Below are positions 3,157 to 29,510 of a stretch of 29,510 nucleotides of DNA, piece by piece (the stretch's first letter is position 1; every line of letters starts with the position of its first letter). A program made the translations under genes and the position numbers. The notes under the pieces are model-generated. The model was not told where the DNA came from and searched no databases. It worked only from the letters and a program-made list of their open reading frames with translations. Origin of the DNA: a virus; the IMG/VR virus record IMGVR_UViG_3300025030_000344, positions 1 to 29,510 of that record; one strand, 5' to 3'.

Positions 3157-3161
3157 AAAAA

Positions 3162-6500: not shown

Positions 6501-8971
6501 CCAATAATGCCCATAGCAAGAGCAACTAAACCAATAGATCCTATATCAGCTCCTTTAATATTTCTAATTAATATAGCCATTCCAATTGAAAATGCTGCTA
6601 CTGCTAATCCAGCTTTAAGACTCCATGCAAATGGAGGAGATTTAAATGCTTTTTCTGTGGGCAAAAACATAAATAAATATGCTAAACCTATTACTCCTAA
6701 TCCAATACCTAACATAGCTAAAGTAGCCAATCCTATTTCTTTTAATCCAAGTTTTTGTCCTAATTCATTTTCACCTTTTATTGATTTAATTAACATTGAC
6801 ATTCCAATTGAAAACATAACAGCTGCTAATCCTACTTTAAGAATCCACATTAATGGGGGAGCTTTAAATGCTTTTTCAGGAGGTAAAGCCATAAATAAAA
6901 ATGCTAAACTTAAAATAACTGTACCAATCATACTCATTGCAAAAGTAGCCAATACTATTTCTCTAAATCCAAGTTTTTGTCCCTTTGTTTCTGTAAGTGT
7001 ATCACCATTAAGTACAGTTTTATCTTTACCATTCATTACTTTCATAAGCATTGCCATTCCTTTTCCAAATATATACATAGCAATCCCTACTTTAAAAGTC
7101 CACATTAATGGTGGAGATTTAAACATTTCTGCTGTAGGTAATCCTAAAAATATAAATGCCATACTTATTATAGAACCTGCTACCATTAATTGAGCTAAAG
7201 TAGCCATTCCTATTTCTCTAAGACCTAATTTCTGTCCTTTAATAGTTTCTGTACCTACACCACCTTTAAGTATTGTTGAATCTTTACCAGTCATTACTTT
7301 TAAAAATACTGCAAAGCCTTTTCCAAATAAATATAATGCTAAACCTGTTGCTAAAATCCATCCAATAGGTGGAGCTTTAAATTTACTTGGATCTGGAAGT
7401 GCCTGCATAATCCAAGCTATAGCAACAATAGATAATGCAACTAAAGGTATAGATGCCATAGCTATTAATAATTGTGAATTTGATACTTTTTGTGATTCTC
7501 CTCCAGAAATTGGGGATTTAAATGCTAATACTATTCCTTTCTTTCCGTGAATTACCATTGCAATAGATTTTAAAGACATACTAAATAAATACATTGCAAG
7601 TCCTATAGATAAAGTCCATCCTAATGGTGGTGCTTTAAATTCAGAAGGTAAACCTTTCATCATCCAAGCTGTTGCTAAAATTCCAGCTGATAACATAATA
7701 ATTATTCCCATTGATTTAAATGCTCCAAAACTAAATTTGCCTTTAGTTATCTCCGTTTTACTAGCAATATCGTATACACCTGTTCCAACTTCTTTTTTAA
7801 ACATATGTAAATAGCCATAAACTCTTGTAAAAGTCATAGAAAAAAACAATAAAGATAATCCAACATTAAATGTCCATCCAATAGGTGGAGCTATAAATTT
7901 ACTAGGCATCATTTTAAATATCCAAGCAACTATTACCATAGTTAATGCTAATAATGGTAATACAGCAAGAGTACTTCCTATAGATCTTATTAAACCTAAT
8001 GGTCCACTTGTAGGATCTGCACCTAATACTTTATTAGTAATTTTCATCATTATTAAATTAACAAAATTACCTCTTAGTTGTGTAAATAACATATTAAATG
8101 CATATATCATTGGAATAAGAGCAAATGATACTGCTATAGCATTTGATAATTGTATTAAATTTATTTTATTAGGCATTGTTGTTAATATTCTAGCAGTTGC
8201 TGAAATAGTCATTGCAATTATTGGTAACATTATCATTGTTCCCATACTAGCTACGCCACTTACAATTGCATTTATACTATTGCCTATTGCTCCAAAAAAA
8301 CCTCTACCTTTAAAAAGATTACCTACTATTTTAACAATTGCAGCTGTTATAGGAACAAATACTGCAGCAATTATACTAGCATTAAATAATTGTTTTTTAG
8401 AAACGTCAGCCATTTGACTTAATATTCTGGATACAGACTGCAAACTCATAGCTATAGCTATCATTGAACCTGCTACTATTACAATGCTACTTGCTGATAA
8501 ACTATTGCTAGTTTTACTTATGACCATTATTGTTCCAAAAACTGCTAATAATATAACAGTTATAGTCATAATCTGTTCTTTAGATATATTTTGCATTTGG
8601 CCAAGACCTTTACCAAAAGCCCAAAAACCTGCGCCTAATAATACAAGAGCTTTTGCAAATTCTCCAATATTGCTTTTACCTTCTTTTGAACCTATAATAT
8701 CTTTTACTATTCCAGATTCTGAAGTAGATGTAGGAGAAGGAGCGACTTTACCACCAACTGCCTTTAAAATTCCTTTTAATAAATCTGTTTGTGTTTGTAG
8801 TTCAGTGACAATAGTTTGAACCCCTTTTACAATATTAGTACTAACATCTAATTGTATTGAAGAAAGACTATTTGATTGTTGCTGACTTATTGCTTCAATC
8901 TTATCTAATGCATTAATAATTAGTTGTTGATTAGCAATTATTCTTTTATCACCGCTACCTTTAAATGGCAT
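3566..8971 (-). CDS. Tail tape measure protein with tandem hydrophobic repeats
   Basis: 1801 residues, the longest gene here. The N-terminus (1-65) is polar and helical (ANQQLIINALDKIEAISQQQ). Almost all of the region from about 95 to 1130 is hydrophobic helices rich in Gly, Ala, Ile and Met, typical of the part of a tape measure that sits in the tail lumen and may enter the host membrane. About residues 345-910 contain eight degenerate repeats with the signature LPxxFKxPPxxWxxxxGLA. Two copies of PWEM(I/T)A(I/L)MG-VVGLGA-MA-AG follow at about 970-1060. A third family, (G)xxxIxxMGExLxxLA...WAxLxF...NIxxMIxG, occupies about 1215-1575. The C-terminus is polar. No peptidase or lysozyme domain is visible. 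It lies downstream of the tail assembly genes, as in most tailed phages. The length would set the tail length. Confidence 0.85.
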   Translation of the reverse strand: MPFKGSGDKRIIANQQLIINALDKIEAISQQQSNSLSSIQLDVSTNIVKGVQTIVTELQTQTDLLKGILKAVGGKVAPSPTSTSESGIVKDIIGSKEGKSNIGEFAKALVLLGAGFWAFGKGLGQMQNISKEQIMTITVILLAVFGTIMVISKTSNSLSASSIVIVAGSMIAIAMSLQSVSRILSQMADVSKKQLFNASIIAAVFVPITAAIVKIVGNLFKGRGFFGAIGNSINAIVSGVASMGTMIMLPIIAMTISATARILTTMPNKINLIQLSNAIAVSFALIPMIYAFNMLFTQLRGNFVNLIMMKITNKVLGADPTSGPLGLIRSIGSTLAVLPLLALTMVIVAWIFKMMPSKFIAPPIGWTFNVGLSLLFFSMTFTRVYGYLHMFKKEVGTGVYDIASKTEITKGKFSFGAFKSMGIIIMLSAGILATAWMMKGLPSEFKAPPLGWTLSIGLAMYLFSMSLKSIAMVIHGKKGIVLAFKSPISGGESQKVSNSQLLIAMASIPLVALSIVAIAWIMQALPDPSKFKAPPIGWILATGLALYLFGKGFAVFLKVMTGKDSTILKGGVGTETIKGQKLGLREIGMATLAQLMVAGSIISMAFIFLGLPTAEMFKSPPLMWTFKVGIAMYIFGKGMAMLMKVMNGKDKTVLNGDTLTETKGQKLGFREIVLATFAMSMIGTVILSLAFLFMALPPEKAFKAPPLMWILKVGLAAVMFSIGMSMLIKSIKGENELGQKLGLKEIGLATLAMLGIGLGVIGLAYLFMFLPTEKAFKSPPFAWSLKAGLAVAAFSIGMAILIRNIKGADIGSIGLVALAMGIIGVAIVLLAWTFKALPDEKQFKSPPYAWSLKAAIAVSLFGLTYLIFSKLKIKNLLYTSLQLDVIGASIVSLAWIFQALPNDPKALPLEWIISTGIAIVVFGTALAIIGKFGGDSIKNGATSMLYAGAAIGAIGAGIFLFIEGLGRIKGDPWEMIAIMGAIVVGLGAVMAVAGLKGVNDSIKKGAEVMLIAAAALGVISAGVWIFMDALSKVDSPWEMTALMGTVIVGLGAAMAAAGIPVIAAFITLGAGAMIVAGSALVLIAGGLFIMSKVYNEGRELFLPSSLDRKKTNLEIMLQSVTNGFSSIGFKDTLKIYAVAPALIMAGLSLITIGEGLAKFTQLVKDKIDIKTLGLNIAYITMVVAKAFGDIGIKFGGSGLTGLVLSFMGGDPVSKGIRMVSGMGEVLSSLAYGVQSWANLKFTLNGKEFKLGRGDFRNLERNIKMIISGEDGKGGLTGVFGTLGASPNAQTDWWFGESNIEKGINSIKGMGEPLSELAKAIIDWAGLKFMYNGHEIQITPGHIAMVQNNIRSIISGYVDKNGKRTGGLTGIFGELGASGGAQTDWFFGESNIEKGINQIKNIGEPLLNLATMVEKMANLTFGDVKLDENKIAVVDKNIKAMVMGLTKTIGEVGSKDSAKHGWFTDSDMTNGLDVIENIGNRFGVLIGVVDDIIKIGTENDGIFGVYDKNGILLAPGLFENNINSMIRGLTFPIGLLGSDDKATHLKYNIFGIDNIKKGVEIIEMLDGKFDNLIDITERISKFDDAELLASNVKHIIMAAPLGLLAVYNLTKDQLRDKNTVKLLTETMPQNFAGMVEAIAKHANAMDKVASSFERIAKSTADFKEAINDLNIRKVDKMNTMFDSISEIYKYEIKVGGDGIASGISEGISTGIEKGLDLIGQFSDKINNMFKSSTKSAAVVTPVAITKNEPTNAPTKSATVQAVADLTSLKLSMDNMSSKLDELINEIKGELKVRVTNQQLNIQ
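6243..7900 (-). repeat. Eight tandem FKxPPxxW repeats inside the tape measure
   Basis: Codons for FKAPP/FKSPP followed by two residues and Trp recur at roughly 7888, 7632, 7373, 7115, 6857, 6638, 6434 and 6250 (the last degenerate, KALPLEW). Spacing is about 255-258 bases (85-86 residues) for the first five, then shortens to about 219, 204 and 184 bases. This suggests ancient in-frame duplication followed by trimming. Confidence 0.8.
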
Positions 8972-12836: not shown

Positions 12837-13595
12837 TTATATTAATCCAAAATCATCTGCATTCGCTATATCCTCTATATCTTTATTACTTCTTAATCCC
12901 TTTGGAAAATCCTTATGCTTTATCACCCTAAACTTATCTGCTTTAAATAACTTAAGCCACTCTTTATCACTTAAATTTTCTAAATCTAATTTATAAAACC
13001 ACCTCCACTTAACCAATTCATTAAGTATTGAAGTCAACTTATTATCACTTAAATCTAATTCTTTTAAATTATTTAAATTTCCTATCTCCTTCGGCAACTC
13101 AACCAACTTATTGCTATGTAAATTTAAAGCTGTTAAATTAGTTAAATTACTTATTTCTTTAGGTAACTCAGTTAATTGATTATTATGTAAATATAATTCT
13201 GTTAATTCTTTTAAATTTTCAATTTCCTTCGGCAACTCTTTTAACTTATTATTACCTAAATATAAATTAGTTAAATTATTTAAATTACTTATCTCCTTTG
13301 GCAACTCTTTTAACTGATTAGTATATAAATTTAATTCTTTTAAATTAGTTAAATTACCTATCTCCTTCGGCAACTCAACCAACTGATTAACACTTAAATT
13401 TAAACTTGTTAATTTAGTTAAATTTCCTATCTCCTTCGGCAACTCAACCAACTTATTATTATTTAAATATAATTCTTTTAAATTAATTAATTCATCAACT
13501 GAAACTTTAGCTAATTTAGCTATCAATTCTAATCCATTTAATTTAGTTCTTTTAGCTTCATTAATAAAATCTTCATACTCCTTTATATACTTCAT
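12837..13595 (-). CDS. Leucine-rich repeat protein with capsid-targeting-like N-terminus
   Basis: 252 residues. The N-terminus MKYIKEYEDFINEAKRTKLN closely resembles the T4 internal protein leader MKTYQEFIAEA; FINE-A fits the prohead protease rule. Residues about 36-196 are seven uninterrupted 23-residue leucine-rich repeats of consensus LxNLxxLxLxxNxLxELPKEIxN, as in bacterial and plant-type LRR proteins that bind other proteins. The C-terminus (KWRWFYKLDLENLSDKEWLK onward) looks like a capping helix region. There is no signal peptide or membrane segment. Some nucleotide units repeat almost exactly (ctccttcggcaactcaacca), pointing to recent unit duplication. It sits between the other two leader-bearing genes. 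The LRR face suggests a host-protein-binding role if the protein is injected, which is inference. Confidence 0.85.
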   Translation of the reverse strand: MKYIKEYEDFINEAKRTKLNGLELIAKLAKVSVDELINLKELYLNNNKLVELPKEIGNLTKLTSLNLSVNQLVELPKEIGNLTNLKELNLYTNQLKELPKEISNLNNLTNLYLGNNKLKELPKEIENLKELTELYLHNNQLTELPKEISNLTNLTALNLHSNKLVELPKEIGNLNNLKELDLSDNKLTSILNELVKWRWFYKLDLENLSDKEWLKLFKADKFRVIKHKDFPKGLRSNKDIEDIANADDFGLI

Positions 13596-14017: not shown

Positions 14018-15883
14018 TTATTTAATTATATATCCCATTTTATCCCATTCAAATTTATAGTTACCTGTTCCAAAACATCTATAATATCCTTTATCATGCA
14101 TTATCTCCACTTCAGTCATCGATGGATCCGCTCCTTCTTTAACCAATATATCTTTTCTAAATTTAAATCTATTCTCTCTTATGCCATCTACTACCCACCA
14201 ATAATTCAAACCAGTATGCCCTAAATAGTTAAAACCTAATTTTGTATATAAATTATCTTGCTCATTTGGACTCCAATCACAATCTGCATAACTAATTAGC
14301 CGTTCAGGTTTATACTCTTTTATAAAGTGTTTGAATAATCTAGAAGCTCCACCTACAACTGTTGTATTTAATTTATTAGCAAATCTAGTTAATTCATAAT
14401 CTCCTTCAATAGCCTTCTGTCCTAAATTCTTTCTCAATGATCCAAAGGTCATTAATAATACTAACTCATCATTGTAATATAAACCTAATTTAACAGCTGC
14501 ATTTGCATTACCTTGCAAATGATTCATATTTAAAAACTCTCTACTATCACTAGAGGACGCCTTTTTAACTATACACTTTCTAGCATATATTTTATTCGGA
14601 GATAAATTTAATAAATTTAAAATTCTAGATTTTACTATCTCTTGCTTATTCAACCATAAATCTTCCCATATATGCACTAACTTAACTCCCCTTTCTTTAG
14701 CTAATACTGTCTTATCTAAATGATAATCTTTAGGTTTATTAAATTCATTATGCCAATATACTCCATTATGTTCAAACCCTATTTTATAATCTTCAATATA
14801 AACATCTATCTCATTACCATTTAAAATTGTTCTATCTTTTTTTGTTTCTATATTTAAACTCTCTATAAACTCTTTAATCTCTTCTTCACTCTTACTTGTA
14901 TAATTAACACTTGAATAAAGAGGATTACATATTGTACATAATTCATTATTAAATTTATATCTTTGATGCAACAGATGTATATTTATATTTTTATAATCTT
15001 TGCATTCACTACAATAAAAATCTAATGTTCCATTTTCATATACCTCTTTAATATTTAAACTATTATAACGTTCTCTTATTTGTTTATCATATTCTTTAAA
15101 TTTTATTTCCTTATATTTATCAGATAATAAATAATGATTTACTCCGTATTTTTTATTATGCGTTTCTTTAATTTTTTCTTTAATATCTTCTCTTTGAAAA
15201 TTATATTCAACATTATAATTTTCAAGATTTTTAATTTTAATTTTATCTATTATATCTCTATTTCCAAATGGACTTTCATTTCCATATCGCTCTAAATTAG
15301 TTTCTTTAATTTTATCTCTTATTATTTCTGATGATAAATGACTTTCATTTCCATATCGCTCTAAATTAGTTTCTTTGATTTTATCTCTAACTTCTTTACT
15401 TTTTAAAGTATAATTTACTCCATATCTTTTAATACACGTTTCTTTAATTTTTTCTGATATTTCAATACTTTGTCTTGGATTATCAACTCCATATCGTTCT
15501 AAACATGTTTCTTTAATTTTATCTCTAACTTCTTTATTTTTTAAAGGATTATCGACTCCATATTTTTTAATACATGTTTCTTTCTTTTTTATTTCTATTT
15601 GTTTTCTTAATTCTGAATCATTAGTAGCACATTTAGTAGAACAATAATTACTATAGCCTTTATCTATTCCGGAAAAATTACATTTATTTATTTTACATAC
15701 TCTACATATAGGTATATCTAAAGTATTATTTAAAAAATGCCATATTTTTTGCATAAATACTAAATTATAATCTTTAGTATAATCTACTATTTTTAAATAC
15801 AGATCTAAATATCTTTTTTTTACACTTACTTCTTTTATGTAAGGACCTTTTAAATTCAATAATATATCTTTATAATCTTTCAT
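14018..15883 (-). CDS. Homing-endonuclease-like protein 1 (zinc finger, seven YG repeats, Vsr-like nuclease, GNAT-like domain)
   Basis: 621 residues from the ATG at 15883. A start at 15922 is also open but lies inside the terminator palindrome, and the sister proteins align with 15883. Order: a Cys cluster (C60, C63, C81, C85); seven repeats of about 23 residues with KIKETCLERYGVDNP consensus (about 98-255); a second Cys set (C291, C294, C316, C319); a restriction-like core at about 333-425, EIDVYIEDYKIGFEHNGVYW then H378, and HIWEDLW; and a GNAT-like domain at about 430-565 (GLYYNDELVLLMTFG, GGASRLFKHF, ISYADCDW, LYTKLGF). The architecture recalls Hef-type mobile endonucleases of T4-like phages. 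It lies just downstream of the tube gene. Its last codons (GYIIK-stop) contain the promoter decamer of the next gene. Confidence 0.8.
   Translation of the reverse strand: MKDYKDILLNLKGPYIKEVSVKKRYLDLYLKIVDYTKDYNLVFMQKIWHFLNNTLDIPICRVCKINKCNFSGIDKGYSNYCSTKCATNDSELRKQIEIKKKETCIKKYGVDNPLKNKEVRDKIKETCLERYGVDNPRQSIEISEKIKETCIKRYGVNYTLKSKEVRDKIKETNLERYGNESHLSSEIIRDKIKETNLERYGNESPFGNRDIIDKIKIKNLENYNVEYNFQREDIKEKIKETHNKKYGVNHYLLSDKYKEIKFKEYDKQIRERYNSLNIKEVYENGTLDFYCSECKDYKNINIHLLHQRYKFNNELCTICNPLYSSVNYTSKSEEEIKEFIESLNIETKKDRTILNGNEIDVYIEDYKIGFEHNGVYWHNEFNKPKDYHLDKTVLAKERGVKLVHIWEDLWLNKQEIVKSRILNLLNLSPNKIYARKCIVKKASSSDSREFLNMNHLQGNANAAVKLGLYYNDELVLLMTFGSLRKNLGQKAIEGDYELTRFANKLNTTVVGGASRLFKHFIKEYKPERLISYADCDWSPNEQDNLYTKLGFNYLGHTGLNYWWVVDGIRENRFKFRKDILVKEGADPSMTEVEIMHDKGYYRCFGTGNYKFEWDKMGYIIK
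14025..14034 (-). promoter_or_regulatory. Candidate late promoter box (GATATATAAT) inside the end of endonuclease 1
   Basis: An exact GATATATAAT followed by TAAATAAAA on the minus strand, 18 bases before the ATG at 14006. It encodes the terminal YII residues of endonuclease 1, so gene end and promoter overlap. Confidence 0.5.
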
Positions 15884-15890
15884 ATAAATA

Positions 15891-15924
15891 AAATGGTTCA
15901 TATAATTAATTATATGAACCATTT
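15891..15924. terminator. 34-base perfect palindrome: terminator of the tail tube gene
   Basis: aaatggttcatataatt / aattatatgaaccattt, 17-base arms with no spacer, starting 27 bases after the tube gene stop at 15952. The T-rich minus-strand continuation is short. It also contains the dispensable upstream start (15922) of endonuclease 1. Confidence 0.7.
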
Positions 15925-16598: not shown

Positions 16599-18227
16599 TT
16601 AGCTTTTTTTCCATTCAAATTTATAATTTCCTGTTCCAAAACATCTATAACATCCTCTATCATGCATTATTTCCACTTCAGTCATCGAGGGATCTGCTCC
16701 TTCTTTAACCAATTTATCCTTTCTGAACTTAAACCTATTTTCTCGAATTCCATCTACCACCCACCAATAATTAAGTCCTGTATGCCCTATATATTTAAAC
16801 CTTAATTTAGTATATAAATTATCTTGCTCATCAACCGTCCAATCACAATCTGCATAACTAATTAGCCGTTCAGGTTTATACTCTTTTATAAAATATTTAA
16901 ATAAACGACTGGCTCCTCCTATTACACTAATATTCAATTTATTAGCAAACCTAGTTAATTCATAATCTCCTTCAATAGCCTTCTGTCCTAAATTCTTTCT
17001 CAACTTACCAAAGGTCATTAATGATACTAATTCATTATTATAATATAAACCTAATTTAACAGCAGCATTAACATTACCTTGTAAATGGTTCCTATTTAAA
17101 AACTCTCTACTATCACTAGAATTAACGGTTTTAATTATACACTTTCTAGCATATATTTTATTCGGAGATAAATTTAAAAGATTTAAAATTCTAGATTTAA
17201 TTATTTCTTGTTTAGTTATCCAATCATCTTCCCATATATGCACCAACTTAACTCCCTTTTCTTTAGCTAATGCTGTCTTATCTAAATGATAATCTTTAGG
17301 TTTATTGAATTCATTGTGCCAATATACTCCATTATGCTCAAAACCTAAATTATATAAAGGTATAAATATATCTATTTCATCTCCATTTAAAATAGTTCTA
17401 TCTATTTTTGTTTCTATATTTAAACTTTCTATAAATTCTCTAATTTCATTTTCTTTACCACTAGATCTATAACTATTTAATGGATTACAATTAAGACAAG
17501 GATTAATTGAATATACATTAATTCTTTGATGAAGTAAAAAAGAATTGATATTATAATTTTTATTACATTTATTACAAATAATATCTATAGTTCTATTTTT
17601 ATTTATTTTAATTATATTTAAATGATTATATTTGTTTTTAATATATGTTTCATATTTCTCAAATAATGTTTCTTTTCTTTTATCAGTTATTATTTTGTTT
17701 TGTTGTGGATGATTAACTCCATATATTTTATTCCAAGTTTCTTTTCTATTTTTTAAAAAATCTTCAGTTTTAAATATACTATCTTTACCATATCGTTTAA
17801 TATATGTTTCTTTTATTTTATTTTGAATTTTTTCATTTGATATAAAATTTTCACCATATTTTTCTTTTAATGTTTCTTTTCTTTTATTAATAAAATATTC
17901 ACTTTGAAATAAATTTTCTGTTCCATATTTTTCTTTTATTTTTTTATATCTATTATCTTTTACTAATTGATCATTTGCTGCACATTTTTTTGAACAATAT
18001 CCAGTATAATTAAATTTATTTGGATTAAATTTAGATTCTACTGAATTACATATTTTACAATTTGGAATTTTTAAAGTATTATTTAAAAAATGCCAAAGTT
18101 TACGAGAAAAATTAATATTTAATAATTTCGTATATAAAATAATTTCTTGATATATTTCAGAAAAATTAATTTTTATTTTATATTCTGTTCTTTCTTTTCT
18201 AGAAAGTTTTAATATTTCTTTATTCAT
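16599..18227 (-). CDS. Homing-endonuclease-like protein 2
   Basis: About 542 residues from ATG 18227; a TTG at 18239 is less likely. It has the same plan as endonuclease 1 but about five YG repeats (from KIKEKYGTENL to FEKYETY). Cys sets are CKICNS...CSKKC and CNKCNK...CLNCN. The nuclease core is EIDIFIPLYNLGFEHNGVYW with the following His and HIWEDDW. The GNAT-like end reads ISYADCDW and LYTKLRF. The C-terminal third is nearly identical in DNA to endonuclease 1 (for example the stretch around 16950-17030 against 14385-14460). Its ATG overlaps the end of endonuclease 3 by 8 bases, so the two are translationally coupled. It sits between sheath and tube genes. Confidence 0.8.
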   Translation of the reverse strand: MNKEILKLSRKERTEYKIKINFSEIYQEIILYTKLLNINFSRKLWHFLNNTLKIPNCKICNSVESKFNPNKFNYTGYCSKKCAANDQLVKDNRYKKIKEKYGTENLFQSEYFINKRKETLKEKYGENFISNEKIQNKIKETYIKRYGKDSIFKTEDFLKNRKETWNKIYGVNHPQQNKIITDKRKETLFEKYETYIKNKYNHLNIIKINKNRTIDIICNKCNKNYNINSFLLHQRINVYSINPCLNCNPLNSYRSSGKENEIREFIESLNIETKIDRTILNGDEIDIFIPLYNLGFEHNGVYWHNEFNKPKDYHLDKTALAKEKGVKLVHIWEDDWITKQEIIKSRILNLLNLSPNKIYARKCIIKTVNSSDSREFLNRNHLQGNVNAAVKLGLYYNNELVSLMTFGKLRKNLGQKAIEGDYELTRFANKLNISVIGGASRLFKYFIKEYKPERLISYADCDWTVDEQDNLYTKLRFKYIGHTGLNYWWVVDGIRENRFKFRKDKLVKEGADPSMTEVEIMHDRGCYRCFGTGNYKFEWKKS

Positions 18228-19926
18228 TTTTCCATTCAAATTTTAATGAACCACTATCATATATTCTATAAATTTTTCTAGACATCATTATTTCATGTTC
18301 TGTCATATTAGAATCATAACCTTCTTTAACTAATACATCTTTCCTATAATTAAATCTATGTTTTTTAATTCCATCTACTACATACCAATAATTTGGAGGT
18401 GTATTATTTATAAAATTGAATCCTAATTTATAATAAAGATTTCCTTTACTCCAACTCCTATCAGCATAACTAATTATTCTTATTGGATTATATTCTTTAA
18501 TAAAATGTTTAAATAAGCGATCAGCACCACCAATAACATTAGTATTTAAAATTGTACAGAATCTAAGTAATTCATACTCATTTTCAATTGAAATTTGTCC
18601 TAGTGCTTTTCTTAATACACTAAATGTCATTAAACTAACTAATTCATTATTATAATATAGCCCATATTTTATTTTAGATGGAGTATATCCTTGTATGTGA
18701 TTTTTTTCTAAGAAATCTTTTTCTTCTTTTGTATTAATTTCTTTTATATCACATTTTCTAGCATATATTTTATTATCAGATAAATTTAATATATTTTTTA
18801 TTCTAGATTTAATTATATCTTTTTTATAATACCAATCATCTTCATATATATGTATTAATTTTATATTATTATTTTCAGCTAATTCTGTTTTTTCTAAATG
18901 ATAATCTTTATCCTTTTGGAGTTCATTATGCCAATAAATTCCATTAAATTCAAATCCTATTTTTAAATCAGGTAAATATATATCTATTTCTTTACCATTT
19001 AAAAATATTCTTCTATTTAATTCTAATGTATTATCATATATTTCACTTATAAATAATTTTAAACTATTTTCAGGTTTTGATAAATTTAATTGATTACAAT
19101 TTGTGCATGTTTCCTCTTTATTATATCTATATCTAAATAAATCTCTACTTATTTTATATGATTTTTTACAATTGTTGCACATAATAGTGAAAAAATCTCT
19201 TTCAATAAGAAGTATTTGTTTATCTGGATATGTTTTTATTATATTTTCTTTTCTTGTTTGTAGTATTTTATATTTAATATTTTCAACTTTATTTGGATTA
19301 TCTTCTCCATATAGTTCTATCATTGTATTTTTAAATACATCTTTAACTATTTCCGATTGCCATGGATGATTAGTTCCATAACGTTCTTGGGATGTTTTTT
19401 TATATGACTCTTTCCAACTATCTATATTTTCTTTGAATGATTCTATTCTTTTTTCTTGTATCTCCTTTAATTGGGCTACATTTTCTACACCATAACGTTC
19501 TAAATTAGTATTCTTTAACTTATTTTGAATATCTTGTTTTTCTTCTTCGGATTTATTTAATTTAGTATTACTTAATTTATCTTTTATATTCTGTAATTTA
19601 TTTGGATTATCAACTCCATAACGGTTTAGACTAGTTTTACGTCTAGATTCTTTCATTTTTTCCTTTAACTCTGGATCATTAACCATACATTCTTTTGAAC
19701 AGTATCCTGTATATCCAATATCTAAATTTTTAAAATTAGAATCTTTATTATTACATACTTTACACTTGGGAACTTCTTTTATTTTATATATGTAGTGCCA
19801 TATTTTTTGTAAAAAACTGATATCTAAATCTAAATAACCATTTATCAATTCATACTTAATTGGATAATTTTTCTTTACACTGCGTTCTTGTAATAAATTT
19901 CCTTTTAATTCTATAATATTTTCCAT
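18220..19926 (-). CDS. Homing-endonuclease-like protein 3
   Basis: 568 residues, the most diverged of the four sisters. It has an N-terminal Cys set (CKVCNNKDSNFKNLDIGYTG then CSKEC), only about four clear YG repeats (NRYGVDNPN, ERYGVENVA, ERYGTNHPW, ELYGEDNPN) in an otherwise charged helix region, and a second Cys set (CNNCKK, CTNCN). The nuclease core is EIDIYLPDLKIGFEFNGIYW followed by H and HIYEDDW, then the GNAT-like domain (GLYYNNELVSLMTFS, GGADRLFKHF, ISYADRSW, LYYKLGF). It follows the sheath gene and its terminator, and overlaps endonuclease 2 at its 3' end. Confidence 0.8.
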   Translation of the reverse strand: MENIIELKGNLLQERSVKKNYPIKYELINGYLDLDISFLQKIWHYIYKIKEVPKCKVCNNKDSNFKNLDIGYTGYCSKECMVNDPELKEKMKESRRKTSLNRYGVDNPNKLQNIKDKLSNTKLNKSEEEKQDIQNKLKNTNLERYGVENVAQLKEIQEKRIESFKENIDSWKESYKKTSQERYGTNHPWQSEIVKDVFKNTMIELYGEDNPNKVENIKYKILQTRKENIIKTYPDKQILLIERDFFTIMCNNCKKSYKISRDLFRYRYNKEETCTNCNQLNLSKPENSLKLFISEIYDNTLELNRRIFLNGKEIDIYLPDLKIGFEFNGIYWHNELQKDKDYHLEKTELAENNNIKLIHIYEDDWYYKKDIIKSRIKNILNLSDNKIYARKCDIKEINTKEEKDFLEKNHIQGYTPSKIKYGLYYNNELVSLMTFSVLRKALGQISIENEYELLRFCTILNTNVIGGADRLFKHFIKEYNPIRIISYADRSWSKGNLYYKLGFNFINNTPPNYWYVVDGIKKHRFNYRKDVLVKEGYDSNMTEHEIMMSRKIYRIYDSGSLKFEWKNE

Positions 19927-23255: not shown

Positions 23256-25103
23256 TTAATTTGTATTAATGTAATTAAATTTTAAATTACCTGTTCCAAA
23301 ACATCTATAATATCCTTTATCATGCATTATCTCCACTTCAGTCATTGATGGATCCGCTCCTTCTTTAACCAATTTATCCTTTCTGAACTTAAACCTATTT
23401 TCTCTTATGCCATCTACTACCCACCAATAACTAAGCTCTGAATGCCCTATATATTTAAAACCTAATTTTATATACAAATTATCTTGCTCATTTGATGTCC
23501 AATCACAATCAGTATAACTAATTACTTGTTCTGGTTTGTATTCCTTTGTAAAATAATTAAACAAACGACTTGCACCTCCTGTAACAGATATATTCAATTT
23601 ATTAGCAAACCTTAAAAGTTCATATTCTCCTTCAACTGCCTTTTGTCCTAAATTCTTTCTTAATGATCCTAACGTCATTAATGATACTAATTCATTATTA
23701 TAATATAAACCTAATTTAACAGCAGCATTAACATTACCTTGCAAATGGTTCCTATTTAAAAACTCTCGACTATCACTAGAGGACACCTCTTTAATTATAC
23801 ACTTTCTAGCATATATAGTTTCATTTAAATTTAATAGCCCTTTTATTCTTGACTTAATAATATCTTTTTTATAATTCCAATCATCTTCCCAAATATGCAC
23901 CAACTTAACTCCTTTAGATTTAGCTAATAATGTTTTATTTAAATGATATTTATCATCTTTATATAATTCGGAATGCCAATAGACACCATCTACTTCAAAT
24001 CCTACTTTATAATCTTCTATATAAATATCTATTTCATTATCATTTAAAATGGTTCGATCTTTTTTTGTTTCTATATTTAAACTTTCTATAAATTCTCTAA
24101 TTTCATTTTCTATTTTACTTTCAAAAGAATTTGAATAATATAAAGGTTCACAATTTAAACATGTATTTTTATTTATTAATGATCTTTTATGAAGTAAATA
24201 GCTTGTTATAGTATATTCTTTATTACATTTATCGCATGTTATAGTAACATTTAAATTATTATCAATATTAATAATATTTAGAGTATTAAATTTATTTAAA
24301 ATATCATTTTTATATTTATTTTTTAATTTTGATTTATAAAAATTAGATTGAGTTATAAATTCAGTTCCATATTTTTTTAAACATGTTTCTTTTGATTTTT
24401 CTTTTATTTGTTCTGATTGTAATACATGATTAGTACCATATTTTTCTAAGCATGTTAATTCTCTTTTTTCTAAACTTTCTTTTGTTACATTATGAAACTG
24501 ATTATATCTTTTAAAATTAGTTTCTTTTATTTTTTGTTTAATTTCATTATTTCTAAATACATTATCACTTCCATATTTTTCAGTTAAAGTTTTTATAGAT
24601 TTTTGTTTAATTTTTATATTATCAAAAACATATTCAACTCCATAACGTTCTAAATTAGTTTCTTTAATTTTTTCTCTTATCTTTTTAACAGATAATATTT
24701 CTTCATTACCATATTTTTCTAAACATGTTGATTTTCTTTTTTCTATTGCTAATTTACTTTGACTTGGATTTATTGTTCCATATCTTTCTAATGAAGTTTT
24801 TCTAATTTTATTTATAGATAATTGTTTTGAACATTCATTTGAACATGATGTATAACCAATAGAAATAGATCTAAATTTTTTTAAATTATTTTTACATATT
24901 TCACATATAGGTATTTCACATATATCATTTAAATATAAATAAAGAATTTCTTTAAATTGTATTTTAGTAAAATTATATTTTGTAATAAAAATATTTAAAT
25001 CATTTAAAATTTCTGGTTCAAATTTTTCGAACCATTTTTTATTCATTCTAGTTGATAAAAAACGATTATTTATTTTTATTATATGCAGTAATTTATTTTT
25101 CAT
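23256..25103 (-). CDS. Homing-endonuclease-like protein 4
   Basis: 615 residues. Order: N-terminal Cys set (CEICKNNLKKF then CSNEC); about seven YG repeats (ERYGTINPS, EKYGNEEIL, ERYGVEYVF, EKYGSDNVF, KRYNQFHNV, EKYGTNHVL, KKYGTEFIT); a second Cys set (CDKCNK, CLNCE); nuclease core EIDIYIEDYKVGFEVDGVYW then H, and HIWEDDW; and a GNAT-like domain (GLYYNNELVSLMTLG, GGASRLFNYF, ISYTDCDW, LYIKLGF). Here the core reads EVDG, closer to the EDxHD form than the EHNG of sisters 1 and 2. The C-terminal DNA is nearly identical to that of endonuclease 1. It sits between the TerL paralogue and the sheath gene. Confidence 0.8.
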   Translation of the reverse strand: MKNKLLHIIKINNRFLSTRMNKKWFEKFEPEILNDLNIFITKYNFTKIQFKEILYLYLNDICEIPICEICKNNLKKFRSISIGYTSCSNECSKQLSINKIRKTSLERYGTINPSQSKLAIEKRKSTCLEKYGNEEILSVKKIREKIKETNLERYGVEYVFDNIKIKQKSIKTLTEKYGSDNVFRNNEIKQKIKETNFKRYNQFHNVTKESLEKRELTCLEKYGTNHVLQSEQIKEKSKETCLKKYGTEFITQSNFYKSKLKNKYKNDILNKFNTLNIINIDNNLNVTITCDKCNKEYTITSYLLHKRSLINKNTCLNCEPLYYSNSFESKIENEIREFIESLNIETKKDRTILNDNEIDIYIEDYKVGFEVDGVYWHSELYKDDKYHLNKTLLAKSKGVKLVHIWEDDWNYKKDIIKSRIKGLLNLNETIYARKCIIKEVSSSDSREFLNRNHLQGNVNAAVKLGLYYNNELVSLMTLGSLRKNLGQKAVEGEYELLRFANKLNISVTGGASRLFNYFTKEYKPEQVISYTDCDWTSNEQDNLYIKLGFKYIGHSELSYWWVVDGIRENRFKFRKDKLVKEGADPSMTEVEIMHDKGYYRCFGTGNLKFNYINTN

Positions 25104-25152
25104 TTAAAAATTTTATATTATATGCATATTTATCAGTTTGTTTTTAAAATAA

Positions 25153-25178
25153 AAAAGTCTATATTTCTATAAACTTTT
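25153..25178 (-). terminator. GAAA-tetraloop terminator after the TerL-like paralogue
   Basis: On the minus strand AAAAGUUUAUA pairs with UAUAGACUUUU (one G-U pair) across a GAAA tetraloop, then two more U follow. It starts 19 bases after the stop at 25197. Confidence 0.75.
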
Positions 25179-25196
25179 AAATTACTATAACTTTAT

Positions 25197-26009
25197 TTAA
25201 ATTTTAAAATATTTATCTTTTATTTTAAATGATAAATTATATTCATGCATAAAGTTTTCTTCACCTATATTTTTTATAGTATCTTCTTTCCATTTTTCAT
25301 TTCTTTGTGGATGATCATACCAATAAACTTTTTTAACTTTAAATATTTCAGAATCTTGTACAAATTTATAAAATAAATCAAAATGAATATCTGAAGACAT
25401 AATAATTATTCTAGAATTATTAATTGAAGCATATAATGGTACTATTTCTTTTATTAAAATTTTTTTATTATTATCAGACATGTTAGAAATATTATCAATT
25501 ATAAAAATATCATAAAGTTTACCTTTATAATTATTACTATTTACTAATTGTATACTTGAATTATTATCGAATTCTATTACTTCTGATGTGCTTTTTATAA
25601 TACCTGGTTTCAAATACATAGGTAATTTAGAATAAAAAATTTTAAATTTATTAAATAATTCTCTACCAATTTCATGTTTAATTGAAAATAAAGCTATTTT
25701 TTTTTGTTCAAATACTGCAAAATATAAAGATAATAATGTATTTAACATTGAAATTCCCATTTGTCTAGAACTTAATAATATTGAAAATCTATTTTCATTC
25801 CAAAATTTTAAAATATCTTTTTGATATTCATATAAATTAATATCCAATTTTGATATAAAATATTCAATATCTTTTCTACATTTATAATATTCATCTAATT
25901 CATCATAATCTAAAACATATTTAAATTTACTATTTTTACTATTAGGTATATTTCTATAACAATATTCATTGCTATTTATACTATTTTTATTTATATAATT
26001 CATAACCAT
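25197..26009 (-). CDS. Degenerate terminase ATPase-domain paralogue (no Walker A Lys, no nuclease)
   Basis: 270 residues that align along their length with the N-terminal ATPase half of TerL next door. DIEYFISKLDINLYEYQKDI then FWNENRFSILLSSRQMGIS matches TerL DIVYFANKYC...LRDYQEKML..FVDNRFSICLAARQTGK-T. KLPMYLKPGI matches NLPFFMKPGL, and VYWYDHPQRNEKWKEDTIKN matches the equivalent TerL segment. Key residues are lost: Walker A is SRQMGIS (Ile86 in place of Lys), Walker B is IFIIDN (Asn173 in place of Glu), and the coupling motif is IMSSD instead of ITSTP. It stops where the nuclease domain would begin. ATP hydrolysis is unlikely. It may be a regulatory or decoy subunit, or a relic. The frame is intact, with its own promoter-like box and terminators on both sides, which argues for function. 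Confidence 0.75.
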   Translation of the reverse strand: MVMNYINKNSINSNEYCYRNIPNSKNSKFKYVLDYDELDEYYKCRKDIEYFISKLDINLYEYQKDILKFWNENRFSILLSSRQMGISMLNTLLSLYFAVFEQKKIALFSIKHEIGRELFNKFKIFYSKLPMYLKPGIIKSTSEVIEFDNNSSIQLVNSNNYKGKLYDIFIIDNISNMSDNNKKILIKEIVPLYASINNSRIIIMSSDIHFDLFYKFVQDSEIFKVKKVYWYDHPQRNEKWKEDTIKNIGEENFMHEYNLSFKIKDKYFKI

Positions 26010-26012
26010 TTT

Positions 26013-26020
26013 TATTTATA
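26013..26020 (-). promoter_or_regulatory. TATAAATA box immediately before the TerL-like paralogue
   Basis: An exact T4-type late promoter octamer within TTAATATATAAATAAAAATGG on the minus strand, broken here as TTAATATATAAA and TAAAAATGG. It is only 3 bases from the ATG at 26009 and 9 bases from the second ATG at 26003, so transcripts would be nearly leaderless. It may instead be an A/T-rich translation-initiation context. Confidence 0.35.
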
Positions 26021-26024
26021 TATT

Positions 26025-26076
26025 AACAATAGAGTCAGAAAAAATTTAAAAATTAATTTTTTCTGACTCTATTGTT
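26025..26076. terminator. Bidirectional terminator after terL
   Basis: A perfect 20-base-pair stem (aacaatagagtcagaaaaaa / ttttttctgactctattgtt) with a 12-base spacer, starting 24 bases after the terL stop. A-run and T-run arms make it efficient on the minus strand. Confidence 0.85.
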
Positions 26077-26100
26077 AATTTTTTTAATAGTTAGTTACTT

Positions 26101-27987
26101 TTAAATAATATCATAAATATCGAAAAATAAACTACCATCTTCTCCTTTAGATCCCTTATTTAATTCTTTATCAACTAAATCTTGAATATCTTTTTCTATT
26201 ATTTCATATAATTCTTCTGCAAAATCTGAGAAATCCATAGTAGAAAAGAATTCATTACTGGTTATGCAAGACATTATTAAATCATCGTGTCCCTTCATTC
26301 CAGCATAGGATCCAGCTGGAGTTTTTCCAAATTGTTTAGCTTCTTCTATTGTATTAAATTCAAATAATTGTATTCTATTTTCTCTAATTGATTTTTTAAA
26401 TTTTTGACATATTATAGGTTTATTATCAGTTTTAATTCTTAATCCAAAACTAGGAGTCTTTGCGTCATTTCTATGTTTAAATTTTACTATCATTTCTTCA
26501 TCAAATTCATTTCTAGATGGAAAAATAGTTTGTAAATTTTTAATTAATTCACCACCAAAAGTATTCCATTCTATTATTATTTTTATATTTTCTGCATAAA
26601 AAATATCAAAAATTAAAGTATATAATATTTTAGCATATTGTTCAGGAGAATGTTCATTACTTCTAAATACTCCTATTTGTTTTAAAGCAAAAAAGTCCAT
26701 AAAAGAGCCAGGCTGTTTTAGATGTTTAAACATATCTTTATCTAATAATTCTAGTTTAAAGATATTTATTACAGCATGATCTCCAAAATTACCAGCAGAT
26801 AAATCACAACTAAATAACCAATAATTTTCTTCATTACCTATTTCATCAATATCAAATTTTGGATGCCATTTCAAAAATATTTCATAAGGTATTTCTAAAT
26901 CTTCTAATTCATCAAATTGATGTGATATAAATTCTACTTTTGCATTTTCTAATTTTTTAAGTTCTCCTGGACCTAAAAGTAAATTATCTCCTGATATAAA
27001 TTGATTACCATATTGTCTATTAAATGCATCTTCACCACCTAAATTAGAAATTTCTTTTCTCATCCATTCATTATCTCTTCCTGGAACCTCCCACCAATCA
27101 ACTCTAAAATCTTTAAATTCATTTTGTTTTCTAACAGCTCCATCATAAATATCATGAAACTTATTAAATCCATTTGGTGTACTAGTAATAATAATTCTAG
27201 ATATTTGTGAAGACGATAATGTAGGAAATACATTTTCATAAAAACTATGTACAAAATTAGGATGTATGTGAGCAAACTCATCTAAAAATAAAAGGTGAAT
27301 AGTAAAACCTATACCTGCTTTTTTAGTAGTAGATTGAGCAACAATCCTACAGCCATTATCAAATTTTAAATTAAATACATCATTTTTTAATAATCCTGGT
27401 TTCATAAAAAATGGTAAATTATCTAATATAACTTTTGCTTTATCTACAATTTCTCTCGTCGTGGCACCTTTATTCGATAAAATTAAACAATTCTTATCAA
27501 AATTAAATAATACGTACCATGCTATATAAATTGACGAACATATTGTTTGACTTGAAAGTATACCATTAGTATATAATCTATGATTTGGATGATTTACTGT
27601 AACATCAAACATACCTATTTTATTGTTACTTTTTGATATACTAATAATTTTTTCTAAACCATCGACTGTTATTATTTCCGTATTTAATTCAAGTTTATCG
27701 AAAGATATTTTATTATAATTTTTATCATAAACTTTATGTAAATCAGCGCCTTCTAAAATTTTACCTGACTCTGTTATTATTGTCCATACTTTATAAGGTT
27801 GAGTATTATGAAGATATTGTAATTCTTCATATCCAGTATCAGTTAAAACTTGTATATATGATAACTTAATAGATTTAATTATTTTTTTAGATATATTATT
27901 TTCATCTAAATCTAAATTTCTATACTGTATTTTTTCTATTAATTCTATTAAGTATAAAATTATTTTTTTTAATATTTTTTTTATCAT
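26101..27987 (-). CDS. terL: Terminase large subunit, C-terminal piece carrying the intein C-half
   Basis: 628 residues. Residues 1-147 are the C-terminal part of a split intein, and residues 148-628 continue TerL from the Walker A threonine. Intein part: VLTDTGYEE; block B at about 67-88 (VWTIITESGKILEGADLHKV); block F/G (GMFDVTVNHPNHRLYTNGIL then SSQ); splice before Thr148. TerL part: Walker B LLFLDE (D236, E237), coupling motif ITSTPNG (about 267-273), and an RNase H-like nuclease with D395 (FSCDLSAG), E473 (IIIEWNTFGG) and D568/D569 (KGHDDLIMS), matching T4 gp17. It powers and terminates DNA packaging at the portal. Its ATG overlaps the endonuclease stop (TAATG), so translation is coupled. 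The protein needs splicing with the product of 29114-29510 to be active. Confidence 0.9.
   Translation of the reverse strand: MIKKILKKIILYLIELIEKIQYRNLDLDENNISKKIIKSIKLSYIQVLTDTGYEELQYLHNTQPYKVWTIITESGKILEGADLHKVYDKNYNKISFDKLELNTEIITVDGLEKIISISKSNNKIGMFDVTVNHPNHRLYTNGILSSQTICSSIYIAWYVLFNFDKNCLILSNKGATTREIVDKAKVILDNLPFFMKPGLLKNDVFNLKFDNGCRIVAQSTTKKAGIGFTIHLLFLDEFAHIHPNFVHSFYENVFPTLSSSQISRIIITSTPNGFNKFHDIYDGAVRKQNEFKDFRVDWWEVPGRDNEWMRKEISNLGGEDAFNRQYGNQFISGDNLLLGPGELKKLENAKVEFISHQFDELEDLEIPYEIFLKWHPKFDIDEIGNEENYWLFSCDLSAGNFGDHAVINIFKLELLDKDMFKHLKQPGSFMDFFALKQIGVFRSNEHSPEQYAKILYTLIFDIFYAENIKIIIEWNTFGGELIKNLQTIFPSRNEFDEEMIVKFKHRNDAKTPSFGLRIKTDNKPIICQKFKKSIRENRIQLFEFNTIEEAKQFGKTPAGSYAGMKGHDDLIMSCITSNEFFSTMDFSDFAEELYEIIEKDIQDLVDKELNKGSKGEDGSLFFDIYDII
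27547..27987 (-). other. Split intein, C-terminal part (147 residues)
   Basis: The first 147 codons of the downstream terL piece. It opens with a helical, Ile/Lys-rich stretch (KKILKKIILYLIELIEKIQY) that could help the halves associate, then blocks B, F and G. The last residue is Gln (codon 27547-27549), not Asn, and the residue before it is Ser instead of His. The +1 extein residue is Thr (27544-27546). Confidence 0.85.
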
Positions 27988-29087
27988 TATTTATTTTTAT
28001 TTTCTATAAATTCTAAGCAATTATTTATTACTAAATCAGGATCTTTATAATATTCTAATTCATTTACATGATATACTTCATATCCTGATCTTAATATTGC
28101 ATCATCTCTATCTTTTTCTCTTTTATTATTTTCGGGATTATTTTTATGATAATATACACCATCAAATTCTATAATTTTATTTATATCTTTTATAAAAAAA
28201 TCTGGTAAAATTATTCTATTACATAATCTTAATCTATATTCTGAATTAGTACCATCATCTAAAATAATTTTATTTTTATTTAAAGTTGCAAAATATATCT
28301 CATTATATTTATCTTTTATAATTTCATATAAAGAAATAAAAAGTTTCTGTGATACTTTAGAATAACTACTTACTTTAAAATTATTACTCCATCTATTTAT
28401 TTTTAAATTCCATTTTTCTATACCTATTTCTTCTCCATATTTATTTATAAAAAAATTTAAATCTCTACACTGAATTTTAGAAATAATATTTTTTGCTTCT
28501 TCTAAAGAAAAACCTCTTCGTATCCAATATTCTTTATGTATAGGCATAACTCTATTTTTCATAAAATACTTATAATTATCTTTTTTCATAATAAAATATT
28601 CTTCATCTGTTAAATTAGGATATCTCTTTTTATAAAACTCAATAGAAAATGGACTAGTCTCTTTACGTTTTTGCTCAGTAGTTTTACTTTTAGACATAAT
28701 GTTTCCTTCACCTTTCATTCTATCAGAAATCCATTTTCTCCATTTATCTTCTTTCATATGTTTACCTCCATTTATAGTTGTTGCCGCTTTATCACTAGGT
28801 ATACATAATAATGCATCTACACCAAAATCTTTTCTATAATCACTATTATTTTTATCGGGATGAAATCTTTTGAAATGACCACTATATATTCTTTTAACAG
28901 CCATTCCACAATATTTACATATAACATAATCTGTATTTTCTATACTGTTTAATTTTAATTTTTCCGATTCTTTATAAGCACCATAAATACCTTTACATTT
29001 ATTTGAACAAAATTTAGCACTTATAGTAGAAGAGTTAAATTCATTTTTACAATGAATGCATTTTATTTTTCTAATTATATTTGACAT
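27987..29087 (-). CDS. EDxHD/Vsr-like homing endonuclease inside fractured terL
   Basis: 366 residues. Two N-terminal zinc-finger-like motifs: C10, C13, C27, C31, then a C2H2-like CKYCGMAVKRIYSGHFKRFH (C57, C60, H71, H76). The middle is probably DNA-binding (FYKKRYPNLTDEEYF; YWIRRGFSLEEAKNIISKIQ). The C-terminal Vsr/PD-(D/E)xK-like nuclease has LPDFF (D296), IIEFDGVYYH (E307, D309, H314) and RDDAILRSGYEVYHVNELE. This family is known from fractured genes, where such endonucleases lie between split-intein halves (Dassa and colleagues, 2009). It starts 26 bases after the stop of the N-terminal terL piece and its stop overlaps the next ATG. It would cut intein-free terL alleles and spread the insertion by homing, which is inference. 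Confidence 0.85.
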   Translation of the reverse strand: MSNIIRKIKCIHCKNEFNSSTISAKFCSNKCKGIYGAYKESEKLKLNSIENTDYVICKYCGMAVKRIYSGHFKRFHPDKNNSDYRKDFGVDALLCIPSDKAATTINGGKHMKEDKWRKWISDRMKGEGNIMSKSKTTEQKRKETSPFSIEFYKKRYPNLTDEEYFIMKKDNYKYFMKNRVMPIHKEYWIRRGFSLEEAKNIISKIQCRDLNFFINKYGEEIGIEKWNLKINRWSNNFKVSSYSKVSQKLFISLYEIIKDKYNEIYFATLNKNKIILDDGTNSEYRLRLCNRIILPDFFIKDINKIIEFDGVYYHKNNPENNKREKDRDDAILRSGYEVYHVNELEYYKDPDLVINNCLEFIENKNK

Positions 29088-29091
29088 TTTT

Positions 29092-29099
29092 TATTTATA
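29092..29099 (-). promoter_or_regulatory. TATAAATA box between terL N-piece and endonuclease
   Basis: An exact TATAAATA in the 26-base gap, 4 bases before the endonuclease ATG. It has the same AATATATAAATAAAAA context as the box at 26013-26020. It could allow independent expression of the endonuclease, or be a translation-initiation context. Confidence 0.35.
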
Positions 29100-29113
29100 T
29101 ATTAGATATAGTA

Positions 29114-29510
29114 CTAGCTTCTTGATAGATAAGAATATGTTTTATATAAATAATATTTAATTTTATCTAAAAAAGATAATGTTTTATTTGTTTTAGATAT
29201 AACATAATATAATTCAAATATAGGAAGTGTATAAGTATTATCTTTATTTTTAAATTTACTTAAACTATTAATTAAAGTAATATCATTTAACTTTATAGTA
29301 ATTAATATATTATGGAAAAAACATTTCCCCGTTTGTCTCGCCGCGAGGCAGATACTGAAGCGATTATCAACAAAATGTCTAAGCATTTTTTCTTGATAAT
29401 CTCTTAATACAATTGTTCTAAGACCTTCATCGGTCATTACTGTACAATACTTATTAGCAAAATATACTATATCTTTAGCACATTTTCTTATTTCACTTAT
29501 TTCAAAATCT
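29114..29510 (-). CDS. terL: Terminase large subunit, N-terminal piece carrying the intein N-half (5' end outside window)
   Basis: The frame is open to the window edge, so the true start lies beyond 29510. The ATG at 29437 is internal: the 24 codons before it encode KCAKDIVYFANKYCTV, matching the TerL-like paralogue. Then LRTIVLRDYQEKMLRHF, VDNRFSICLAARQTGK (adenine-binding Gln motif region and Walker A) and, straight after the Lys, Cys1 of an intein (CFFHNILITIKLND). The frame stops 69 residues into the intein at TAG 29114-29116. The rest of Walker A (Thr) is encoded at 27544-27546, 1.57 kb downstream. This piece cannot act as an ATPase without trans-splicing to the product of 26101-27987. 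Confidence 0.9.
   Translation of the reverse strand, partial: DFEISEIRKCAKDIVYFANKYCTVMTDEGLRTIVLRDYQEKMLRHFVDNRFSICLAARQTGKCFFHNILITIKLNDITLINSLSKFKNKDNTYTLPIFELYYVISKTNKTLSFLDKIKYYLYKTYSYLSRS
29117..29323 (-). other. Split intein, N-terminal part (69 residues)
   Basis: Begins with Cys (codon 29321-29323) in block A (CFFHNILITIKLND), then a PIFELYYVISKTNKTLSFLD stretch and a helical end (KIKYYLYKTYSYLSRS). Block B is absent here and found in the C-part, so the split lies between blocks A and B, unlike common natural split inteins. Confidence 0.85.
29326..29362 (-). other. GC-rich island at the intein insertion site
   Basis: 23 of 37 bases are G or C (62%), against roughly a quarter around it. 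It encodes RFSICLAARQTG of TerL with codons such as CTC, GCG, GCG, ACG and GGG that are rare in neighbouring genes. It includes the dyad ctcgc-c-gcgag at 29337-29347. Confidence 0.75.

What the first reader, a model, noticed from the sequence alone, without database searches (positions are those of the whole stretch)
26101..29510. Fractured terminase gene: split intein plus interposed homing endonuclease
The sequence shows TerL Walker A (ARQTGK) running directly into an intein Cys1, a stop 69 residues later, a complete 366-residue EDxHD/Vsr-like endonuclease gene, then a gene starting with the other 147 intein residues and continuing TerL exactly at the Walker A Thr. The packaging ATPase can therefore only form by protein trans-splicing. 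Established: fractured genes with split inteins and EDxHD endonucleases were described from metagenomes by Dassa et al. 2009, and AceL-TerL is a known split intein in a terminase. Inference: this is a new member in an otherwise T4-like genome, and DNA packaging depends on splicing.
Basis: partly seen in the sequence, partly recalled or inferred. Interest (0 to 1): 0.88.

Follow-up and report, generated by a model that had tools for sequence, protein, structure and literature searches.

The report
Phage packaging motor gene in pieces
In this huge phage the gene for the motor that packs DNA into the capsid is cut in two inside its ATP-binding loop by a split protein-splicing element (with a selfish DNA-cutting gene between the halves), so the motor should form only if the two proteins meet and splice; relatives, including the largest known phage and two cultured phages, carry the pieces many kilobases apart.

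Summary
On the minus strand TerL runs to ARQTGK, then 69 intein residues (Cys1) and a stop; a 366-aa Vsr/EDxHD-type endonuclease gene; then 147 intein residues fused to TerL from the Walker-A Thr. In 31 related contigs TerL reads GK|T uninterrupted. The window belongs to the 462-kb huge phage LR756500, which encodes no intact TerL.

The element is a family: 53 IMG/VR contigs plus LR756501, all at the same TerL site, with conserved amphipathic helices added to both halves. The endonuclease decays repeatedly while the split persists. In one nearly identical phage pair the same intein is split in one and contiguous in the other. In several lineages the halves lie apart: 12.4 kb in the 735-kb phage LR756501, about 22 kb on opposite strands in one contig, about 77 kb on opposite strands in cultured Vibrio phage vB_VmeM-32. 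In cultured Salicola phage SCTP-2, TerL is in three distant pieces.

Trans-splicing is inferred, not shown; the window's intein ends Ser-Gln instead of His-Asn. Verdict: a new variant of the known 'fractured gene' kind.

The parts
29324..29510 (-). TerL N-extein (last 62 residues of 122), ends at Walker A ...ARQTGK
   Evidence: phrog_5989 E 5e-20; about 57-72% identity to the same part of uninterrupted TerL in the relatives
29114..29323 (-). N-intein (IntN), 69 aa from Cys1 plus stop; last ~25 aa a basic amphipathic helix (LSFLDKIKYYLYKTYSYLSRS)
   Evidence: sequence; same element in L041 and LR756501 and in 29 distinct IMG/VR IntN sequences
27987..29087 (-). Interposed homing endonuclease gene, 366 aa: N-terminal Cys-rich part, linker shared by the family, C-terminal Vsr/EDxHD-type nuclease domain
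   Evidence: PF18741 (E 2.5e-5, below the curated cut-off); family profile hits Vsr 1odg/1vsr and I-Bth0305I 3r3p at E 0.015-0.037; fold match to 3r3p prob 1.00, TM(target) 0.74
27985..27989 (-). TAATG: endonuclease stop overlaps the start codon of the IntC-TerL gene (possible translational coupling)
   Evidence: sequence; the upstream ORF overlaps the IntC start in 29 of the 38 relatives listed, with my choice of start codons
27547..27987 (-). C-intein (IntC), 147 aa: amphipathic helix (about 1-24), block B ADLH, block F MFDVTV..NH, ends NGILSSQ
   Evidence: family profile vs VidaL/gp41-1/CatC; Intein_splicing in 37/39 members of the alignment that holds it; alignment A1
26101..27546 (-). TerL C-extein, 481 aa from the Walker-A Thr: Walker B (LLFLDEFA), ATPase and nuclease domains
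   Evidence: T4 gp17 E 2e-29, PF03237
25197..26009 (-). TerP: TerL-ATPase-like paralogue lacking the nuclease domain and with Walker A GK changed to GI (neighbour, not part of the element)
   Evidence: phrog_5989 E 2.9e-29; second match of TerL in the genome
23256..25103 (-). Free-standing DUF7487/MTES_1575 endonuclease gene between TerL/TerP and the tail sheath gene (neighbour)
   Evidence: PF24308 E 9e-37, PF18741; in many intact relatives the sheath gene directly follows TerL

Best explanation
The terminase large subunit is made as two proteins. The N protein ends in a 69-aa IntN, the C protein begins with a 147-aa IntC. The amphipathic helix at the end of IntN and the one at the start of IntC dock into a helical hairpin (inferred), which brings block A together with the rest of a HINT fold; Cys1, Thr+1 and cyclisation of the C-terminal Gln then splice the exteins into ...ARQTGK-TICSS..., restoring the P-loop that the insertion splits. 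The endonuclease gene between the halves cuts intein-less terL and drives the whole cassette into it by homing; because the IntC-TerL start overlaps the endonuclease stop, translation of the essential C part is probably coupled to it. In descendants the endonuclease decays while the split remains, and the halves can then separate in the genome because only the proteins need to meet. Shown: anatomy, exact empty site, intein homology, lack of another TerL, contiguous sibling, endonuclease decay, dispersal. Inferred: splicing, docking, homing, coupling.
For: Exact GK|T empty site in 31 related contigs. IntC family: Intein_splicing in 37/39, VidaL/gp41-1/CatC. AlphaFold model of the contiguous sibling L110 (pLDDT 81.7, helices 30-41 and 46-64 before the beta-rich part) matches inteins at the top of the PDB list. 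L110 encodes IntN and IntC in one ORF, while L100, 94-98% identical in DNA around it, has them split by an endonuclease gene: the two halves are one intein. No intact TerL elsewhere. Pairwise dN/dS of relatives' IntN and IntC about 0.1-0.47. Amphipathicity of both helices exceeds shuffles (0.50 vs 0.35, sd 0.016; 0.44 vs 0.36, sd 0.02). The window's TerL nests among intact TerLs (99/100) although the intein family is spread over distant TerLs: horizontal entry. Endonuclease family fits Vsr/I-Bth0305I. Endonuclease remnants in L075, L077, L088, L111, L114.
Against: No protein evidence of ligation. The window's IntC ends Ser-Gln, whereas the 56 relatives listed end His-Asn (49) or Leu-Asn (7), and block B is ADxH, not TxxH; Gln-ending inteins do splice, some slowly, one better than with Asn (PMC4031507). 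Endonuclease cleavage of terL was not tested; profile E-values for the nuclease are modest (0.015-0.04). The IntN part of the L110 model has low confidence (pLDDT 37-58). Helix docking is inferred from conservation, amphipathicity and the model only.
Confidence: 0.88

Rival explanations
1. The terL of this phage is broken: the intein is degenerate (Ser-Gln end) and the locus is a dead relic, with the phage defective or complemented.
For: Atypical C-terminal Gln and loss of the penultimate His in the window only; long branch of its IntC in the intein tree.
Against: All reading frames are intact and TerL-C keeps Walker B and the nuclease domain; the 462-kb genome has no other TerL; Gln-ending inteins splice (PMC4031507). 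Selection was measured on relatives, not on the window itself.
Confidence: 0.07
2. The gap is bridged at RNA or translation level (intron, bypassing, frameshift) rather than by protein splicing.
For: The gene is interrupted by a stop and an endonuclease ORF, as in introns with an endonuclease gene.
Against: No Rfam match in 25000-29510 even at E 1; the flanks of the endonuclease gene code for conserved intein halves under purifying selection; in relatives the halves lie on opposite strands far apart, which excludes cis RNA mechanisms there.
Confidence: 0.01
3. The two proteins act as an unligated two-subunit ATPase that merely assembles through the intein halves.
For: Conserved helices would allow assembly without splicing.
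Against: The break lies between Lys and Thr of the P-loop, so without ligation the intein halves would stay in the ATP site; Cys1 and a +1 Thr (Ser in two) are conserved in the sequences read.
Confidence: 0.04

Closest known systems
Fractured genes of Dassa et al. 2009 (split inteins with an interposed EDxHD endonuclease gene)
   Same: Host gene cut by a split intein, endonuclease gene of EDxHD/Vsr kind between the halves.
   Different: That paper is not held here, so compared from its title, its citations and my own knowledge. Extra here: helices added to both halves, overlap of endonuclease stop with IntC start, natural series from endonuclease to none, dispersal of the halves, a contiguous near-identical sibling.
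AceL-TerL and GOS-TerL atypical split inteins
   Same: Split inteins of TerL with the break after block A, before block B; CatC, their engineered consensus, matches the IntC profile (E 2e-9).
   Different: Their IntN is 25 and 37 aa and the consensus IntC 104 aa (PMC11766414); here 69 and 147 aa because of added helices. Insertion site of AceL/GOS within TerL not checked; GOS uses Ser1/Cys+1, here Cys1/Thr+1.
Contiguous TerL mini-inteins of Ackermannviridae (Klebsiella phage Magnus, Salmonella PM10, Vibrio Kuja)
   Same: Same TerL site GK|T, homologous C part (about 35-40% identity over ~100 aa).
   Different: One ORF, 159-aa intein in Magnus, no endonuclease gene inside, no helical insertion.
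Split DNA polymerase B intein of Pseudomonas jumbo phage MIJ3
   Same: Split intein with an endonuclease gene between the halves in a cultured jumbo phage (PMC6892783).
   Different: Other host gene, HNH endonuclease, halves adjacent.
Split DnaE inteins of cyanobacteria
   Same: Halves encoded far apart; the protein must be trans-spliced (own knowledge).
   Different: Cellular gene, not a phage; different intein; not tied to an endonuclease gene.

Membership tests
Split intein (class 1) | Nucleophile at intein position 1 (Cys) | tested here: met
   ARQTGK|CFFHN; Cys in the IntN sequences listed
Split intein (class 1) | Nucleophile at +1 (Ser/Thr/Cys) | tested here: met
   Thr in the window; T 54, S 2 in relatives
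Split intein (class 1) | C-terminal Asn preceded by His (block G) | tested here: not met
   Window ends Ser-Gln; relatives His-Asn 49, Leu-Asn 7. Gln-ending inteins and inteins without that His are accepted variants that splice (PMC4031507), so this is a common rather than a strictly defining feature; it weakens the claim of activity for the window's member
Split intein (class 1) | HINT fold / intein sequence family | tested here: met
   Intein_splicing 37/39; VidaL 1.4e-10; Foldseek top hits are inteins for sibling L110
Split intein (class 1) | Two halves encoded by separate genes | tested here: met
   Stop after IntN, own start of IntC
Split intein (class 1) | Trans-splicing activity | not testable with these tools
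   Needs co-expression and mass spectrometry
Fractured gene (Dassa 2009) | Endonuclease gene between the split-intein halves | tested here: met
   27987-29087
EDxHD (Vsr-like) homing endonuclease | Vsr/I-Bth0305I-type nuclease domain | tested here: met
   Profile E 0.015-0.037; fold 3r3p prob 1.00, 1vsr prob 0.97. Strength modest
EDxHD (Vsr-like) homing endonuclease | Cuts the intein-less terL near the insertion site | not testable with these tools
   Indirect only: window TerL nests among intact TerLs
AceL-type atypical split intein | Very short IntN (25-37 aa) without extra helical tail | tested here: not met
   IntN 69 aa in the window, about 42-73 aa in the relatives listed, with a helical tail

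The most novel reading that the evidence does not exclude
In a whole lineage of huge phages the packaging ATPase has become a permanently multi-part, dispersed gene: docking helices make the split stable without the endonuclease, and the pieces sit in separate transcription units (even opposite strands, even three pieces), so that trans-splicing acts as an AND gate that sets when DNA packaging can start.
Probability: 0.2. Interest if true: 0.88.

Novelty: new variant of a known kind. Interest (0 to 1): 0.74.

Why it matters
The packaging motor is essential, and here it should exist only after two (in SCTP-2, three) separately encoded proteins find each other and splice. The family gives a rare natural series for one element: contiguous intein, split with endonuclease, split with endonuclease remnants, halves kilobases apart. 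That makes testable how a selfish element turns an ordinary gene into a trans-spliced one and why the split is not repaired. Practical points: annotation and TerL-based trees of huge phages (including the 735-kb phage) can rest on half genes, and the helix-extended halves are candidate new split inteins for protein engineering. I found no report of the dispersed or three-piece TerL in the papers that can be searched here; the original fractured-gene paper and most subscription papers were not available, so priority is not established.

Tried and rejected
Searches with the window's endonuclease or TerP alone in IMG/VR found no relatives; the IntC alignment reached the family. Alignments mixing IntN and IntC fragments with the contiguous L110 intein failed (IntN rows misplaced), so the model was made with IntC rows only and its first ~40 residues are unreliable. 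Joint folding of the two separate window proteins was not possible with the tools. T4-type late promoter TATAAATA upstream of the genes: 21 matches against 20 expected, no signal. RNA intron: no Rfam match.
Full report
What is there. Reading the minus strand: TerL to ...SICLAARQTGK, then CFFHN... (69 aa) and a stop at 29114; a 366-aa ORF 29087-27987; an ORF 27987-26101 that begins MIKKILKKIILYLIELIEKIQYRN and has 147 aa before TICSSIYIAWYV. The endonuclease stop and the next start overlap as TAATG. The TerL parts match T4 gp17 and terminase PHROGs. The boundary is exact: in 31 IMG/VR contigs (some near-copies) the two extein parts abut with no base between them...RQ[IM]GK|T.

Where it lies. 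The window matches LR756500.1, a 462,018-base 'uncultured phage' record, at 100% over window 1-24000 and without a mismatch over 11.4 kb at the other end. The record lengths of this accession series (462, 634, 636, 642, 735 kb) fit the huge-phage set of PMC7162821, whose main text mentions neither inteins nor split genes. In the whole record there is no intact TerL: only the two halves and TerP, an ATPase-only paralogue with GK changed to GI.

The element is a family. An alignment of four IntC sequences found 53 IMG/VR contigs. All carry TerL at the same site, and IntC begins a new ORF in all but one, L110. IntN was found upstream on the same strand in most. IntC members match Intein_splicing (37/39) and the solved inteins VidaL, gp41-1 and CatC. 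Both halves carry something extra compared with AceL-type split inteins: IntN ends in a basic amphipathic helix and IntC begins with another (moments above shuffles). Both halves evolve under purifying selection. About 300 cultured phages, mostly infecting Enterobacteriaceae, have a homologous C part in TerL; in those read from Ackermannviridae the intein is contiguous, sits at the same site and has no such helices.

Why it is one intein. L110 encodes the whole thing in one ORF: CRQAGK|CLFNGK...FLLRFSRKNILKN...NNILSHN|T. L100, 94-98% identical in DNA on both sides, has the same IntN beginning, a stop, a 374-aa endonuclease gene and IntC. An AlphaFold model of the L110 intein (pLDDT 81.7; the first 40 residues poorly determined) shows helices 30-41 and 46-64 before the beta-rich part, and the best PDB matches are inteins. 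Which of the two states came first is not settled; on the extein tree L110 is sister to split L100/L102, and its linker DNA matches neither half of the split form.

Mobility and decay. On the extein tree the window's split TerL sits inside a clade of intact ones (99/100; 9 intact, 1 split), and split, intact and endonuclease-less states are interleaved, so the element has moved between phages or been lost repeatedly. The interposed gene in 16 aligned members is one endonuclease family related to Vsr and to I-Bth0305I, the EDxHD type structure (modest E-values). In the 38 cases listed the ORF upstream of IntC, nearly always the endonuclease, ends within 20 bases of the IntC start or overlaps it (29 overlap), given my choice of start codon. 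The endonuclease is truncated in L041 and L108. In L075, L077, L088 and L114 only stretches of its C-terminal coding sequence are left between the halves, and in L111 its first residues are fused to IntC (read by eye). The split thus outlives the endonuclease.

Dispersal. In LR756501 (735,411 bases; PMC7162821 reports a 735-kb genome, curated to completion, as the largest phage genome then known) TerL-N-IntN is at 624410-623865 and IntC-TerL-C at 611493-609226, 12.4 kb apart with unrelated genes and no recognisable endonuclease gene between. Relatives suggest the path: L115 and L120 have one endonuclease gene between the halves; L116 has two in tandem (Vsr type, then DUF7487-like); the contig of L122 has IntN followed by a gene of the first type and, 12.3 kb on, one of the second type followed by IntC; L119 keeps only the tail of the second fused to a radical-SAM-like ORF, with IntN about 11 kb away. 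In the contig of L107 the halves are about 22 kb apart on opposite strands (a misassembly is not excluded for this single contig).

Cultured phages. Vibrio phage vB_VmeM-32: TerL-N-IntN (...SRQLGK|CVTGD..., 225 aa) near 80 kb on the minus strand, IntC-TerL-C at 1102-3216 on the plus strand, and a second, contiguous intein at Walker B. Salicola phage SCTP-2 (440 kb): N piece (...ARQLGK|CVDYE...) at about 429.4-429.7 kb minus; middle piece 256428-257321 plus, which begins with IntC and ends with a second N-intein after ...SISLLY; C piece in a 709-codon frame at about 216-218 kb minus, which begins with a second C-intein ending ...NVSQ|CDEFAF and holds a further contiguous intein. So SCTP-2 TerL should need two trans-splicing reactions and one in cis. 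The annotation of the stretch calls only the middle piece 'terminase large subunit'.

Open points. Splicing has not been shown for any member here. The window's IntC is unusual in ending Ser-Gln; the 56 relatives listed end His-Asn or Leu-Asn. Inteins with C-terminal Gln splice, some slowly, one more efficiently than with Asn (PMC4031507). Docking of the helices, homing by the endonuclease and translational coupling are inferences. Novelty was judged against the papers that can be searched here; the original fractured-gene paper and the GOS-TerL paper were not readable.

Noticed in passing
25197-26009 (-); LR756501 about 699857-701026 (L065); LR756504 about 635778-636347 (L163): Truncated TerL-ATPase paralogues without nuclease domain in 462-, 636- and 735-kb phages; in the first and last of these Walker A GK is changed to GI, which suggests a non-catalytic TerL-like protein.
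   Followed up: partly
MF360958 (Salicola phage SCTP-2): L139, L135, L141: TerL in three distant pieces joined by two split inteins, plus one contiguous intein in the C piece.
   Followed up: yes
MF360958 about 202-205 kb (L143:1225-3210): A RecA/UvsX-like protein of SCTP-2 appears to carry two contiguous inteins, one in its Walker A motif.
   Followed up: no
L110:7509-9260 vs L100: Nearly identical phages, one with the contiguous and one with the split form of the same intein; the linker DNA of the contiguous form matches neither half of the split one.
   Followed up: partly
14018-15922, 16599-18239, 18220-19926, 23256-25103 (-): Four large free-standing DUF7487-type endonuclease genes sit between structural genes of the same window; pieces of the window match further places in LR756500 (13 places).
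   Followed up: no
26027-26075: Inverted repeat (AATAGAGTCAGAAAAAA...TTTTTTCTGACTCTATT) between TerL and TerP, terminator-like.
   Followed up: no
L079:6826-6933 and 7514-7915: The IntN frame is only 35 aa in this contig; either a frameshift or a decayed half.
   Followed up: no
L145, L150 and others: Related inteins in contigs binned with Bacteroidales, Flavobacterium and Firmicutes genomes, possibly phage contigs and a hint at hosts.
   Followed up: no
12837-13595 (-) and L044:4532-5305: Leucine-rich-repeat proteins with very regular repeats beside structural genes.
   Followed up: no
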